A stretch of 64,000 nucleotides of DNA, taken from positions 186,001 to 250,000 of the forward strand of contig DATMZR010000006.1 of the NCBI GenBank assembly GCA_035573435.1. The letters are read 5' to 3'. Both the position numbers and the translations under genes were made by a program. Source of the stretch: Solirubrobacterales bacterium. GTDB taxonomy: Bacteria > Actinomycetota > Thermoleophilia > Solirubrobacterales > 70-9. The notes under the pieces are model-generated. The model did not search any database and was not told where the DNA came from. It saw nothing but the letters and a program-made list of their open reading frames with translations. Positions 11,061-15,439 of this stretch are shown piece by piece (position 1 is the first letter of the stretch; every line of letters starts with the position of its first letter).

Positions 11061-12259
11061 GCACGGCCATGGTCGAAGAGCGCTTCGGGGTCTACGGGGG
11101 CCGCTATGTCCCCGAGGTCCTGATCCCGGCCCTGGACGACCTGTCCGCCGCCTGGGCGGCCGCCCGTGAGGACTCCGGGTTCCGGGGGGAGCTCGATGCG
11201 CTGCTTCGCGACTACGTCGGCCGGCCGACGCCGCTGTACCGCGCCGACCGTCTCTCGGAGCGGATCGGGCGCCGCGTCTATTTGAAGCGGGAGGACCTCG
11301 CCCACACCGGCGCTCACAAGATCAACAACGCGGTCGGCCAGGCGCTGCTGGCGCGCCAGATGGGGAAGGCCCGCGTGATCGCCGAGACCGGCGCCGGGCA
11401 GCACGGCGTCGCGGCGGCAACGGCCTGCGCGCTGCTCGACCTGGAGTGCGTCGTGTACATGGGCACGGAGGACATCCGCCGCCAAGCGCCCAACGTCGAG
11501 CGCATGCAGCTCCTGGGGGCCGAAGTCATCCCGGTCGAGGCGGGCGCGCGGACCTTGAAGGAGGCCGTCAGCGCGGCGATCCGGGACTGGGTCGCCAACG
11601 TGCGCACCACCCATTACATCATCGGCTCCGCGGTCGGGCCGGCGCCGTACCCGGCGCTGGTGCGCGATCTTCAGCGGGTGATCGGCGACGAGGCTCGCCG
11701 GCAGGCGTTGGCGGCCGAAGGGGGACTTCCAGCCAGGGTGATCGCCTGCGTCGGGGGAGGCTCCAACGCGATCGGGATGTTCTACGCCTTCCTGGAGGAC
11801 CGTGACGTGGTGTTGATCGGAGTCGAGGCGGGAGGCGAAGGGCTGGACGCTCGCCACGGCGCTTCGCTCGTCGCCGGGAGAACCGGGGTCCTGCACGGAG
11901 CGATGTCGTCGGTACTAGCCGACGAGCAGGGGCAGATCCTCGAGGCCCACTCCGTCTCGGCCGGGCTGGACTACCCGGGGGTCGGCCCGGAGCATGCGCA
12001 GCTTCGGGATACGGGCCGGGCGCGCTACGAGGCGGTCACCGACGCGGAGGCGCTCCGCGCCTTCCGGGAGCTGGCCCGGATCGAGGGAATCCTGCCCGCG
12101 CTCGAGCCCGCGCACGCCATCGCCTGGCTGCTTCGGTCGGCCGAATCCTCCGCTGGCGCTTCGGATTCGGCCGACGATTATGACCTCCTCTGTCTCAGCG
12201 GCCGAGGGGACAAAGACCTCGCCGAGGCCATCGCGCGGCTCGGTGACCTCGGTGGCTGA
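11057..12259 (+). CDS. trpB: Tryptophan synthase beta chain
   Basis: PLP-dependent subunit that joins indole and serine. The Schiff-base lysine lies in [10 protein letters not shown] near residue 86; [10 protein letters not shown] and the phosphate-binding glycine loop [12 protein letters not shown] are present, as is the C-terminal [11 protein letters not shown]. Length 400 residues, the usual size of TrpB1. The frame is open upstream inside trpF, but the GTG at 11057 overlaps the trpF TGA (GTGA) and gives a normal N-terminus; an ATG lies four codons later. Confidence 0.95.
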
Positions 12260-13079
12260 GACGTCCGTGACCGGCGCGTCCGGGATCGCGGAGGCGTTCG
12301 CCGGGGCGCGCGAGCAGGGCAGGGCCGCGCTGATGCCCTACCTGATGGGCGGCTTCCCCGACACAGAGACCGCGCTGGCCGTCGCCGGGTCCTACGCCGA
12401 TGCGGGGGCGGATCTGATCGAGCTCGGGGTTCCCTTCTCCGACCCGCTCGCCGACGGCCCCGTGATCCACGCGGCAGCCACGCGGGCGCTGGCGGCGGGG
12501 GCCACGCTGGAGCGAGTCCTGTCGATCTGCGAGCGGCTCGCCGAACGGCTTCCGGTGGTACCGATGGTGTACGCGAACATGGTCCTGGCACGCGGCACCA
12601 CCGAGTTCGCCGGGCTGCTCGCCGACGCCGGCGCTGCCGGCGTGATCGTTCCGGACCTGCCAGTGGAGGAGGCCGGGGAGATCGGCGCCGAGCTGGGAGG
12701 CGCCGGTATCTCGCTGGTGCCCCTGGTCGCCCCGACCACGCCGAGCGAGCGCCGCCGCCGCATCTGCGAGCGAGCGAAGGGGTTCGTCTACGTCGTCTCC
12801 GATACCAAGGTCACGGGCGAGCGCGACCAGCTGCCGGCCGGCCTGGCCGAGCTCGTGGCCGCCGTGCAAGCCGACGCATCCGTGCCCGCCGCGGTCGGGT
12901 TCGGGATCGGGGCTCCGGAGCAGGCGGCGGCCGTGGGACGGATTGCCGACGGGGTGATCATCGGCAGTCGGCTGGTGAGGGCGGTCTCCGAGGCCTCCGG
13001 CCGCGACGAGGCCGCCCGGGCGGTTGGCGACTTTCTTCGCGAGACACGAGCGGCGCTCAGCGGCGACGATCAAGCCTGA
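12252..13079 (+). CDS. trpA: Tryptophan synthase alpha chain
   Basis: Cleaves indole-3-glycerol phosphate and channels indole to TrpB. The signature [19 protein letters not shown] contains both catalytic acids (the E of IELG and the D of PLAD). [27 protein letters not shown] and [14 protein letters not shown] match the family. 275 residues from the GTG at 12252, which overlaps trpB by 8 nt. Last recognised tryptophan gene of the cluster. Confidence 0.94.
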
Positions 13080-13112
13080 TCAGCGTCGAGCGCGTCGGAT
13101 AGATTGCGGCAC

Positions 13113-13274
13113 GTGCAGCTGGTCGTGTTCACGGTCGTCGGGCTCAGCGCGATGGTCGTCGCTTACGCCTTTGGGCTCGGCGGCGCGGTCGGCTTCCTGA
13201 TCTTCCTCGCGATCCTCTTCCTCGGCGTCGTGATCCGTGTCTCGGCGCCGCTGATCGAGCGCCTGCGGCCCTGA
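13113..13274 (+). CDS. Small membrane protein (53 residues), function unknown
   Basis: A GTG-started frame of 53 codons fills the gap between trpA and the phosphofructokinase gene, ending 3 nt before the latter's ATG. The product is almost wholly hydrophobic, with two likely membrane helices (about residues 3-20 and 22-43) separated by a glycine-rich turn (GLGGAVG), and ends in a charged tail, PLIERLRP. The run of hydrophobic codons and the tight fit between neighbours support a real gene. I do not recognise the family. It differs from the larger Trp-operon membrane protein known from other actinobacteria (TIGR02234). Confidence 0.6.
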   Translation: MQLVVFTVVGLSAMVVAYAFGLGGAVGFLIFLAILFLGVVIRVSAPLIERLRP

Positions 13275-13277
13275 GCC

Positions 13278-14309
13278 ATGCGTGTCGGCGTCCTCACGGG
13301 AGGCGGCGACTGTCCTGGCCTCAACGCTGCGATTCGCGCCATCGTGCGAAAGGGCATCGATCAGTATGGGCACGCGATCGTCGGCTTTCGCGACGGCTGG
13401 CGGGGGCCGCTCGAGAACCTCCACGAGGAGCTCACCATCGAGAGCACCCGCGGCATCCTGCCGCGCGGGGGAACCATCCTCGGCACCTCCCGCACCAACC
13501 CGTTCAAGGGCGAGGAAGGGCCGGAACGGGTTCGCGAGACGATAGAGGCCCTCCATCTGGACGGGCTGATCGCGATCGGCGGCGAGGACACCCTCGGCGC
13601 CGCAGCGCGTCTCAACGGCGAACACGCGGTGCCGGTGCTCGGAGTCCCGAAGACGATCGACAACGACCTGGCCGCCACCGACATGACCTTCGGCTTCGAC
13701 ACCGCCCTCCAGGTGGCGACCGAGGCGATCGATCGCCTTCATACGACCGCTGAATCCCACCATCGGGTGATGGTCGTCGAGGTGATGGGGCGACACGCAG
13801 GCTGGATCGCGCTCCACTCCGGGCTGGCAGGCGGCGGCGACGTGATCCTGATCCCAGAGCGCCCGTTCGACATCGAGGAGGTATGCCGGTTGATCCAGCG
13901 CCGTCACGCCCGCGGTCGCCTGTTCTCGATCGTCGTGGTTGCTGAAGGTGCGATACCTGCCGAGGGGACGATGGAGGTTGCCGAGGGCGAAAAGGACGAG
14001 TTCGGCCACGTCCGCCTGGGCGGCATTGGCCATCGGCTGGAACGGGAGATCGAGGCGCGGACAGGATTCGAGACCCGCGCCGTGGTCCTGGGCCACATTC
14101 AGCGCGGCGGGACGCCGACCGCGTTCGACCGGGTGCTGGCCACCCGACTGGGCGTCGCCGCGATCGACGCCGCGCACGAGGGCCGGTGGGGGACGATGCC
14201 GGCTCTCCGCGGCACACGGATCGAGCTGGTGCCACTTGATCAGGCGGTGGAGAAGCTGCGCACGGTCCCCCCGGAGGACTACGAGGTAGCCGAGCCCTTC
14301 CTCGGGTGA
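13278..14309 (+). CDS. 6-phosphofructokinase, pyrophosphate-type signature
   Basis: Phosphorylates fructose 6-phosphate in glycolysis. The fold is clear: VGVLTGGGDCPGLNAAIR, catalytic TIDND (Asp128), MGRHAGWIAL and HIQRGGTP. Two specificity positions are informative: GGEDT places Asp at residue 104, where ATP enzymes have Gly, and PKTIDND places Lys at 125, where E. coli PfkA has Gly. In this family Asp plus Lys marks pyrophosphate-dependent enzymes, as in the Amycolatopsis enzyme; actinobacterial ATP enzymes keep Gly with Lys. PPi use is therefore likely but inferred. 343 residues; its stop overlaps the next gene (GTGA). Confidence 0.88.
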   Translation: MRVGVLTGGGDCPGLNAAIRAIVRKGIDQYGHAIVGFRDGWRGPLENLHEELTIESTRGILPRGGTILGTSRTNPFKGEEGPERVRETIEALHLDGLIAIGGEDTLGAAARLNGEHAVPVLGVPKTIDNDLAATDMTFGFDTALQVATEAIDRLHTTAESHHRVMVVEVMGRHAGWIALHSGLAGGGDVILIPERPFDIEEVCRLIQRRHARGRLFSIVVVAEGAIPAEGTMEVAEGEKDEFGHVRLGGIGHRLEREIEARTGFETRAVVLGHIQRGGTPTAFDRVLATRLGVAAIDAAHEGRWGTMPALRGTRIELVPLDQAVEKLRTVPPEDYEVAEPFLG

Positions 14310-15439
14310 CCGCTCGCGCGGTCGGGACCGTCCTGGCAATGCTGGGGCTGGTCGTTGCCGGCCTGGCCGCAGGTTGCGCAGCTACCGGCTCCGGGATCGA
14401 GGGGGGCGAGCGCGTGACGATCTACGTCAGCATGCCGCTGCGCGGCCCCGATTCGGTTGAGGGCCGCGACGTGGTTCGCGCCGCAAAGCTCGCCTTGGCA
14501 GACGCAGGCGGAAAGGTCGGGGAGCTTGCGGTGCGCGCTGTCTACCTCGACGACACCGGCGGCTCGGGCGCCGCCGCTCGCTGGAGCCAGGCGGTGGCCG
14601 CCGCGAATGCCCGGAAGGCGGCGCAGGACTACTCGGCGATTGCCTACCTGGGCGACTTCCACTCCGGCGCCACCCGCGCCTCGCTGCCGATCACGAACGC
14701 GGCGCGGATGCTCCAGGTCTCGCCGGCCAGCGCCGCGGTCGACCTAGTGCAGCCCTACCTTGGAGCGGGGGACCAGATCCCGGAGGAGGTTCAGGCGACC
14801 GGCGACCGTACCTTCGGCCGCGTGATTCCCAGCGACGAGGTGCAGGCCGAGGCGGCCGCTGGATGGACGAGGCGGCTTGGCGCCCGGCGGGTGGGCACGC
14901 TCGCGGATGGCTCCGAGTTCGGCCGGACCATGGTTCGGGCCTTTCGCCAAAGCCTGCCGAGCGCCAGGCTGACGCGTCGCCGCGATGACCTCCGCTACTA
15001 CGGTGGCGGACCCGAGCGCCTGCCGGCCACGCTGATCCACGGCTACACCGGCGCGGTGATGGGGTCGGACGCCCTGCTCGGTGTCCGGAGCGCACCCGGG
15101 ATCCTGGTCACCTCCGCCGCCCAGGATCCCTCGCAGCTGCCGCCGGCGGGGGAACGGTTCGCGCGGGCCTTCAGGCAGCGTTACGCGCGCGAGCCGGGCC
15201 GCTACGCCGCCTACGGCTACGAGGCGATGGGGGTGGTGCTCGACTCGATCCGCCGCGCGGGCGATCAGGGCGACAGTCGCGATGCCGTCGTCGACGCCTT
15301 CTTCGACACACAGGATCGCGACTCGGTGCTGGGTACCTACTCGATCGACGAAGTGGGCAACACGACCCTCGGCCGGCTCTCGGGATACCGGCTCACCCAT
15401 GGCCGGCCACGCGTCCAGTTAGCGTTACGAGTGCGCTGA
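14306..15439 (+). CDS. Lipoprotein ABC-transporter substrate-binding protein (branched-chain amino acid type)
   Basis: Type I periplasmic-binding fold resembling LivJ/LivK proteins. A signal peptide ends in a lipobox (GLAAGC, Cys24), so it is probably anchored on the outer face of the membrane. Conserved features are IYVSMPLRGPDSVEGRDVVRAA near the N-terminus, AYLGDFHSGATRASLPITN and AAYGYEAMGVVLDSI. No permease or ATPase genes adjoin it, so the transporter is elsewhere or the protein acts as a sensor. 377 residues from a GTG that overlaps the phosphofructokinase stop; the ligand is unknown. Confidence 0.82.
   Translation: MTARAVGTVLAMLGLVVAGLAAGCAATGSGIEGGERVTIYVSMPLRGPDSVEGRDVVRAAKLALADAGGKVGELAVRAVYLDDTGGSGAAARWSQAVAAANARKAAQDYSAIAYLGDFHSGATRASLPITNAARMLQVSPASAAVDLVQPYLGAGDQIPEEVQATGDRTFGRVIPSDEVQAEAAAGWTRRLGARRVGTLADGSEFGRTMVRAFRQSLPSARLTRRRDDLRYYGGGPERLPATLIHGYTGAVMGSDALLGVRSAPGILVTSAAQDPSQLPPAGERFARAFRQRYAREPGRYAAYGYEAMGVVLDSIRRAGDQGDSRDAVVDAFFDTQDRDSVLGTYSIDEVGNTTLGRLSGYRLTHGRPRVQLALRVR

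What the first reader, a model, noticed from the sequence alone, without database searches (positions are those of the whole stretch)
13113..13274. Unrecognised 53-residue membrane protein between trpA and phosphofructokinase
A GTG-started frame encodes a two-helix hydrophobic peptide filling nearly the whole gap, 3 nt before the next ATG. It is below usual annotation size cut-offs and likely missed in automated annotation. Its place at the end of a tryptophan cluster invites a role in export, in a membrane complex or as a small regulator.
Basis: partly seen in the sequence, partly recalled or inferred. Interest (0 to 1): 0.5.

Follow-up and report, generated by a model that had tools for sequence, protein, structure and literature searches.

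The report
Conserved unnamed small membrane protein gene
The tiny reading frame behind the tryptophan gene trpA is a real protein-coding gene for a roughly 53-residue membrane protein that relatives across a whole bacterial order keep, with what looks like its own promoter, but it matches no described family and its job is unknown.

Summary
The frame at 13113-13274 (+) is a real gene. Homologs evolve as protein: pN<pS in 141 of 141 within-family pairs; window versus its congener dN/dS 0.19. A combined profile matches 168 of 176 sampled genomes of the order (E<=0.1; three are probably chance); each of the 8 misses lacks trpA or the DNA behind it in its assembly. Outside the order 33 of 223 match, none better than E 0.005. 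Outside family f1 it lies 7-854 nt behind trpA on the same strand in 75 of 75 genomes where both places were printed. It is not simply the last trp-operon gene: a TANNNT -10 box begins 12-17 nt before the start codon in 57 of 63 loci and in 14 of 14 further loci, against 1.3% of all ATG/GTG. That predicts a leaderless mRNA (window: TAGATT 13100-13105, GTG 13113). The gene persists where other genes separate it from trpA. Pfam, NCBIfam and PDB gave no relative above cut-off; it is not SecG, PF09534 or a LIV-permease partner. Best reading: a lineage-specific two-helix accessory protein of a membrane complex. The gene is shown; the function is inferred.

The parts
13100..13105 (+). TAGATT, predicted -10 box (TANNNT) whose spacing puts the transcription start at or next to the GTG: leaderless-type promoter of the small gene
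   Evidence: Box beginning 12-17 nt before the start in 40 of 40 f1, 10 of 10 f2, 2 of 8 f3, 5 of 5 f4 loci and 14 of 14 further loci with starts set by rule; hand-set starts gave 39 of 40 for f1. Background: 204 of 15871 ATG/GTG in the loci, 32 of 3000 in the window
13113..13274 (+). Conserved small gene, 53 aa, two hydrophobic segments, GTG start, TGA stop
13119..13166 (+). First hydrophobic segment (about residues 3-18), ending at the aromatic position Y18 (Y, W or F in most relatives)
   Evidence: Alignment and hydropathy; boundaries inferred
13188..13235 (+). Second hydrophobic segment (about residues 26-41), with F31 and G38 invariant among the 23 f1 rows of A1; a basic C-terminus with near-invariant P46 follows
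   Evidence: boundaries inferred
12276..13079 (+). trpA, tryptophan synthase alpha (stretch given to Pfam; exact start not settled, the mechanical ORF begins at 11994)
   Evidence: Pfam PF00290, E 4.8e-77
13278..14309 (+). Phosphofructokinase, 3 nt behind the small gene; same transcript is inferred from the spacing
   Evidence: Pfam PF00365, E 2.2e-110; same-strand pfk starting within about 200 nt of the small gene's stop in 18 of the 30 loci L001-L030

Best explanation
The frame is a core gene, usually single copy, of one bacterial order. RNA polymerase starts at or next to its start codon from its own TANNNT promoter, giving a leaderless mRNA that in this genome probably runs on into phosphofructokinase. 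In some f3 genomes the gene instead overlaps or closely follows a SnoaL-like gene and is probably translated by coupling or from a Shine-Dalgarno site. The product inserts as a helical hairpin (TM1, short loop, TM2, basic cytoplasmic tail) and most likely acts as a small accessory or stabilising subunit of a larger membrane complex that members of the order share. Shown: protein-level selection, order-wide presence, promoter-like box at the start codon, two hydrophobic segments, retention when flanking genes change. Inferred: transcription from that box, leaderless translation, the hairpin and its N-in/C-in orientation, and the role as a subunit. I put 'a real translated gene' near 0.97 and the accessory-subunit role near 0.4.
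For: Homologs throughout the family and, with a combined profile, in 168 of 176 sampled order genomes at E<=0.1, of which 162 at E<=1e-3 (totals counted from its rows). The 8 misses have no trpA match (G025; G310, G346, G391, G084) or a contig that ends at trpA (G008; G044, G090). pN<pS in 141 of 141 pairs; window/L002 dN 0.11, dS 0.61, substitutions 6:5:20 at codon positions 1:2:3. Box at the start codon in 57 of 63 loci and 14 of 14 further loci by rule against 1.3% background. Of the six f3 loci without it, L066, L067, L068 and L074 start within 5 nt of or overlap the end of a C6 gene, three of them behind a GGAGG-like site; L069 has a box at -18; L070 is unexplained. Profile-profile comparison: f1 to f2/f3 E 1.5e-7, probability 94; f2/f3 to f4 6e-12, 97.5; f1 to f4 7.7e-5, 62. 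Two hydrophobic segments in all 63 (lowest best-15-mer means 1.99 and 2.02); mean C-terminal net charge +0.6 to +2.6 by family, loop near zero.
Against: No partner is identified. AlphaFold2 from two sequences gave one continuous helix (residues 2-51, mean pLDDT 92.8, pTM 0.53), not a hairpin; the alignment was only two sequences deep, but the result does not support the hairpin. Promoter and leaderless start are sequence predictions without transcript data. Pairwise omega is 0.05-0.38 for pairs at least 75% identical but reaches 0.8 among distant ones. The direct f1-f4 link is weak (probability 62). Order-wide presence means the phylogenetic profile does not say which complex it would serve. 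Some genomes show 2-4 profile matches rather than one; I did not follow the extra ones.
Confidence: 0.45

Rival explanations
1. A tryptophan-pathway membrane protein: exporter, sensor or regulator for the trp enzymes, analogous to the membrane proteins in actinomycete trp operons.
For: Behind trpA on the same strand within 854 nt in 75 of 75 order genomes outside f1 where both places were printed, and trpA directly upstream in 35 of 40 f1 loci. The 13 f2/f3 sequences of A2 have two invariant Trp residues.
Against: Promoter-like box of its own; separable from trpA by unrelated genes, once by 11.6 kb. Other neighbours (pfk, binding-protein genes) also recur across the order, so adjacency may only reflect slow rearrangement. 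No match to the trp-operon membrane family PF09534, which is not found in the window's genome at E<=0.001. The clean test was not available: 54 of 54 good genomes have trpA.
Confidence: 0.2
2. A subunit or helper of the branched-chain amino acid (LIV) ABC transporter whose binding-protein genes lie nearby.
For: LivK-like binding-protein genes lie within a few kb in loci of all four families, with permease genes behind them in some f2 and f3 loci (clusters C5/C12; PF02653 confirmed at the locus in G050 and G073).
Against: Of 14 genomes tested, 4 have no PF02653 permease at E<=1e-3 (G000, 97% complete; G001; G054; G055), and all four have the small gene.
Confidence: 0.05
3. A membrane helper tied to phosphofructokinase or glycolysis.
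For: pfk follows on the same strand within about 200 nt in 18 of the 30 loci L001-L030, and lies on the opposite strand within about 0.85 kb in 5 of 5 f4 and 7 of 8 f3 loci and in some f1 loci.
Against: No pfk within the 5 kb held in 9 of the 10 f2 loci L061-L064, L072, L073, L075-L078; in five f2 genomes it was located elsewhere. Its strand and sequence type change while the small gene and its box stay.
Confidence: 0.08
4. Not a conserved protein gene: a chance frame, or a leader or toxin-like peptide under weak constraint.
For: Short frame in GC-rich DNA with many other frames nearby; type I toxins are also short and hydrophobic (recalled).
Against: Third-position-biased substitutions and pN<pS in 141 of 141 pairs; order-wide at a near-fixed place; no Rfam family in the window.
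Confidence: 0.03

Closest known systems
Trp_oprn_chp (PF09534 / TIGR02234), membrane protein of actinomycete trp operons
   Same: A membrane protein lying with trp genes in Actinobacteria (recalled); works-like analogy only
   Different: No sequence match; profile of 180 positions against 53 residues; not found in the window's genome, over its cut-off in 1 of 61 genomes searched
Small accessory subunits of membrane complexes (CydX, CcoQ/FixQ, KdpF; recalled as a class)
   Same: About 50 residues, hydrophobic, conserved
   Different: FixQ matches only at 9.9-14.5 bits against a cut-off of 29; I recognised no oxidase or Kdp genes among the neighbour clusters, of which only some were given to Pfam
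SecG (PF03840)
   Same: Small two-helix membrane protein (recalled)
   Different: All 10 genomes tested, the window's included, have a separate SecG above cut-off

Membership tests
Trp_oprn_chp (PF09534) | Match to the family profile | tested here: not met
   No hit for P0001 and four f1 homologs at E<=10, nor for two f2, one f3 and one f4 homolog at E<=5
SecG (PF03840) | Match to the SecG profile; being the genome's SecG | tested here: not met
   No SecG hit for the small proteins tried; a separate SecG gene in 10 of 10 genomes
FixQ/CcoQ (PF05545) | Profile score at or above the gathering cut-off (29 bits) | tested here: not met
   10.6 bits for P0001, 14.5 at best among the five sequences
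LIV ABC transporter component | Occurs together with a LIV-type permease | tested here: not met
   PF02653 not found at E<=1e-3 in G000, G001, G054 and G055, which have the small gene
Small accessory subunit of a membrane complex (functional class) | Physical association with a larger membrane complex | not testable with these tools
   Needs co-purification or native gels
Leaderless mRNA | Transcript begins at the start codon | tested here: inconclusive
   -10 box at the right distance in 57 of 63 and 14 of 14 loci; no transcript data
Type I toxin | Antisense RNA antitoxin and growth-inhibiting peptide | not tested
   No Rfam match in the window, but no activity test; order-wide presence speaks against it

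The most novel reading that the evidence does not exclude
The gene founds a new protein family: an order-wide, lineage-specific subunit added to a core membrane machine (respiratory chain, ATP synthase or protein export) when the order arose, expressed constitutively from a leaderless promoter and possibly essential.
Probability: 0.25. Interest if true: 0.6.

Novelty: new member of a known kind. Interest (0 to 1): 0.4.

Why it matters
Small membrane proteins are a known blind spot of genome annotation. This one is found in an order-wide sample wherever it could be judged, is under protein-level selection, and reached no cut-off in Pfam or NCBIfam and no PDB match (NCBIfam was tried with f1 sequences only). 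Its start codon is marked by a promoter box. It is a ready target for a knock-out and pull-down in a cultured member of the order, and an example of how a -10 box fixed at the start codon can help to call short genes in GC-rich genomes that use leaderless mRNAs.

Tried and rejected
LIV-transporter partner: rejected, because 4 of 14 genomes tested, G000 among them, lack the permease at E<=1e-3 and keep the gene. SecG: rejected, a separate SecG exists in 10 of 10. PF09534: not found in the window's genome. RNA element: no Rfam family at gathering score in the window. Structure: AlphaFold2 with two sequences gave one straight helix; no fold search was run on it, because a single helix is uninformative. 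Other orders: behind trpA in 20 loci from other orders of the class (L101-L120) the called neighbours are other genes, and the combined profile scores there only at chance level; I did not inspect every short frame in those 20 loci. The scan of genome contigs with the window protein confirmed one relative. Literature: searches. PMC10783764 was read as passages; PMC9562985 was searched for four terms with no hit; the other papers were seen as search listings only. Nothing on this gene appeared in those few searches of an open-access library, which does not show that it is unpublished. No call gave the order's name; Solirubrobacterales (Thermoleophilia) is my inference from recall of genome sizes and gene content.

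Counting choices. Start codons for L001-L030 were set by hand from the frames printed, where upstream DNA was also in view; those of L061-L097 from the profile matches. I therefore repeated the promoter count by rule (in-frame start codon nearest the first profile position): 57 of 63 instead of 56, because L009 moves to a GTG, and 14 of 14 in loci not used before (L123, L124, L127-L138). The profile itself was built from the 63 hand-set sequences. The loci overlap in ancestry and are not independent. The background is every ATG/GTG on both strands of L061-L120 and of part of the window, not curated gene starts. By a loose test that tries all starts in the first 50 codons, boxes also occur at some neighbouring genes (pfk 18 of 27, trpA 0 of 36), so leaderless-type starts are not special to this gene. 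The dN/dS pairs are those of one family with rough identity of at least 55% (141 pairs; 136 with dS below 1.5 printed). The pairing uses 75 of the 80 genomes: G072 has no trpA match, and for G075, G093, G099 and G245 the small-gene place was not printed. G390, G396 and G402 are counted among the 168 but have weak scores (E 0.006-0.05) and no trpA match; they are probably chance.

Full report
What is there. The frame runs from GTG 13113 to TGA 13274, 53 residues, between trpA (stop at 13079) and phosphofructokinase (ATG 13278). The mechanical ORF list would start it at TTG 13104, but the relatives start at the position of the GTG. Frames of this length are common in this GC-rich window (73 of 30 aa or more touch 9 kb), so everything rests on comparison.

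It is a gene. A single-sequence search of 101 genomes (the window's own and 100 relatives) gave 79% identity in a congener and 37-63% in the 28 further family loci L003-L030. The 23 family members of alignment A1 keep G24, F31 and G38 in every row and M1, Y18, V26 and P46 in at least 90%. Substitutions between the window and its congener fall 6:5:20 on codon positions 1:2:3, with dN 0.11, dS 0.61 and ratio 0.19; in the other two frames pN exceeds pS. In 141 within-family pairs pN is below pS in all 141. The ratio is 0.05-0.38 for pairs at least 75% identical and rises to 0.8 for some distant ones, where short length and saturation make it unreliable.

It belongs to the whole order. The 23 loci L061-L083, taken behind trpA from the other three families of the order, each carry a 52-62 residue frame of the same design on the trpA strand. 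The sequences differ (f2/f3 consensus MGLxxAxTVGLVxWIVLWAxGxKAFDAFL; f4 MINLVAF...). Profile-profile comparison joins them: f1 to f2/f3 E 1.5e-7 (probability 94), f2/f3 to f4 6e-12 (97.5), f1 to f4 7.7e-5 (62). Membrane composition can inflate such scores, and the direct f1-f4 link is weak, so I count position as well. A combined profile run over 399 genomes of the class matched 201; counting its rows, 168 of 176 order genomes match at E<=0.1 (162 at E<=1e-3), and 33 of 223 outside the order, the best of these at 0.005, which I take as chance. The 8 order genomes without a match are G025, G310, G346, G391 and G084, where trpA itself was not found, and G008, G044 and G090, where the contig ends at trpA. 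Three of the 168 (G390, G396, G402) are weak and also lack trpA, so they are probably chance. The misses therefore give no case of the gene being absent where the DNA behind trpA is assembled.

Place. In 80 further order genomes outside f1, trpA was found in 79. In the 75 where both places were printed, the small gene lies on the same contig and strand, 7-854 nt behind trpA: 67 within 130 nt and 8, all f3, at 528-854 nt. In f1, trpA is directly upstream in 35 of 40 loci. Of the other five, two have a PALP-family (threonine-dehydratase-like) and a RidA-like gene between, one about 1.9 kb, one about 11.6 kb, and one shows no trpA in the 1.5 kb upstream that I held (Pfam was run on one of the two PALP/RidA loci). 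Downstream neighbours vary. pfk follows on the same strand within about 200 nt in 18 of the 30 loci L001-L030. It lies on the opposite strand in 5 of 5 f4, 7 of 8 f3 and some f1 loci, and is not within the 5 kb held in 9 of 10 f2 loci. A LivK-like binding-protein gene recurs in loci of all four families.

Promoter. With starts set by rule, a TANNNT hexamer begins 12-17 nt before the start codon in 57 of 63 loci (40 of 40 f1, 10 of 10 f2, 2 of 8 f3, 5 of 5 f4) and in 14 of 14 loci not used to build the test; my first count with hand-set starts gave 56 of 63. At all ATG/GTG codons the figure is 204 of 15871 in the loci and 32 of 3000 in the window. The window has TAGATT at 13100-13105. The spacing puts the transcription start at or next to the start codon, the arrangement known for leaderless mRNAs in actinobacteria (recalled; PMC8485053 and PMC5741613 were seen only as search listings). 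Of the six f3 exceptions, L066, L067, L068 and L074 start within 5 nt of, or overlap, the end of a gene of the SnoaL-like cluster C6, three of them behind a GGAGG-like site; L069 has a box one base outside the range; L070 is unexplained. Thus the same protein appears to be reached by another initiation route. The box stays with the small gene where trpA is 11.6 kb away. Boxes occur at some other genes too (pfk 18 of 27, trpA 0 of 36 by a loose test), so this is not special to this gene.

Protein. All 63 sequences have two hydrophobic stretches (lowest best-15-mer means 1.99 and 2.02) around a dip, and the tail is basic on average. From the positive-inside rule (established knowledge) I infer a hairpin with both ends in the cytoplasm. 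AlphaFold2 with only two sequences gave a single helix over residues 2-51 at mean pLDDT 92.8, which does not support the hairpin; with so shallow an alignment I regard the topology as open. Nothing reached a cut-off in Pfam (P0001 and eight homologs) or NCBIfam (five f1 sequences), and the combined profile matched no PDB sequence at E<=1.

Function. Candidates tested: LIV permeases (PF02653) were not found in 4 of 14 genomes, the window's among them, and all four keep the gene. SecG is present separately in 10 of 10 genomes. PF09534 is not found in the window's genome. A trp role cannot be excluded, because all 54 good genomes have trpA, but the gene's own promoter box and its separability from trpA speak against an obligate trp-operon member. 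A core hairpin of about 53 residues with a standard promoter is best read as an accessory subunit of a common membrane complex. That step is inference, at about 0.4.

Verdict. A real, order-wide small membrane protein family that none of the libraries tried here describes.

Noticed in passing
window 14306-15439 (+): LivK-like binding lipoprotein gene (Peripla_BP_6) in a genome (97% complete) without any PF02653 permease at E<=1e-3: an orphan binding protein that may have a different role.
   Followed up: partly
window 13278-14309; L002-L029, L012, L013, L016, L065-L069, L079-L083: The phosphofructokinase near the small gene varies in type and strand: 58-90% identical to the window's on the same strand in much of f1, 47-55% on the opposite strand in part of f1, 50-53% in f4 and 73-82% in f3, both on the opposite strand, suggesting replacement or inversion at one place.
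   Followed up: partly
L066, L067, L068, L074: In these f3 loci the small gene has no -10 box at its start but overlaps or closely follows a SnoaL-like gene, a possible natural switch of initiation mode.
   Followed up: partly
57 aligned promoter regions of the small gene: Besides TANNNT, a C is found in 86% of the sequences 13 bases before the box (1.3 bits), with no clear -35 hexamer; shared ancestry or overlap with the trpA tail may explain it.
   Followed up: no
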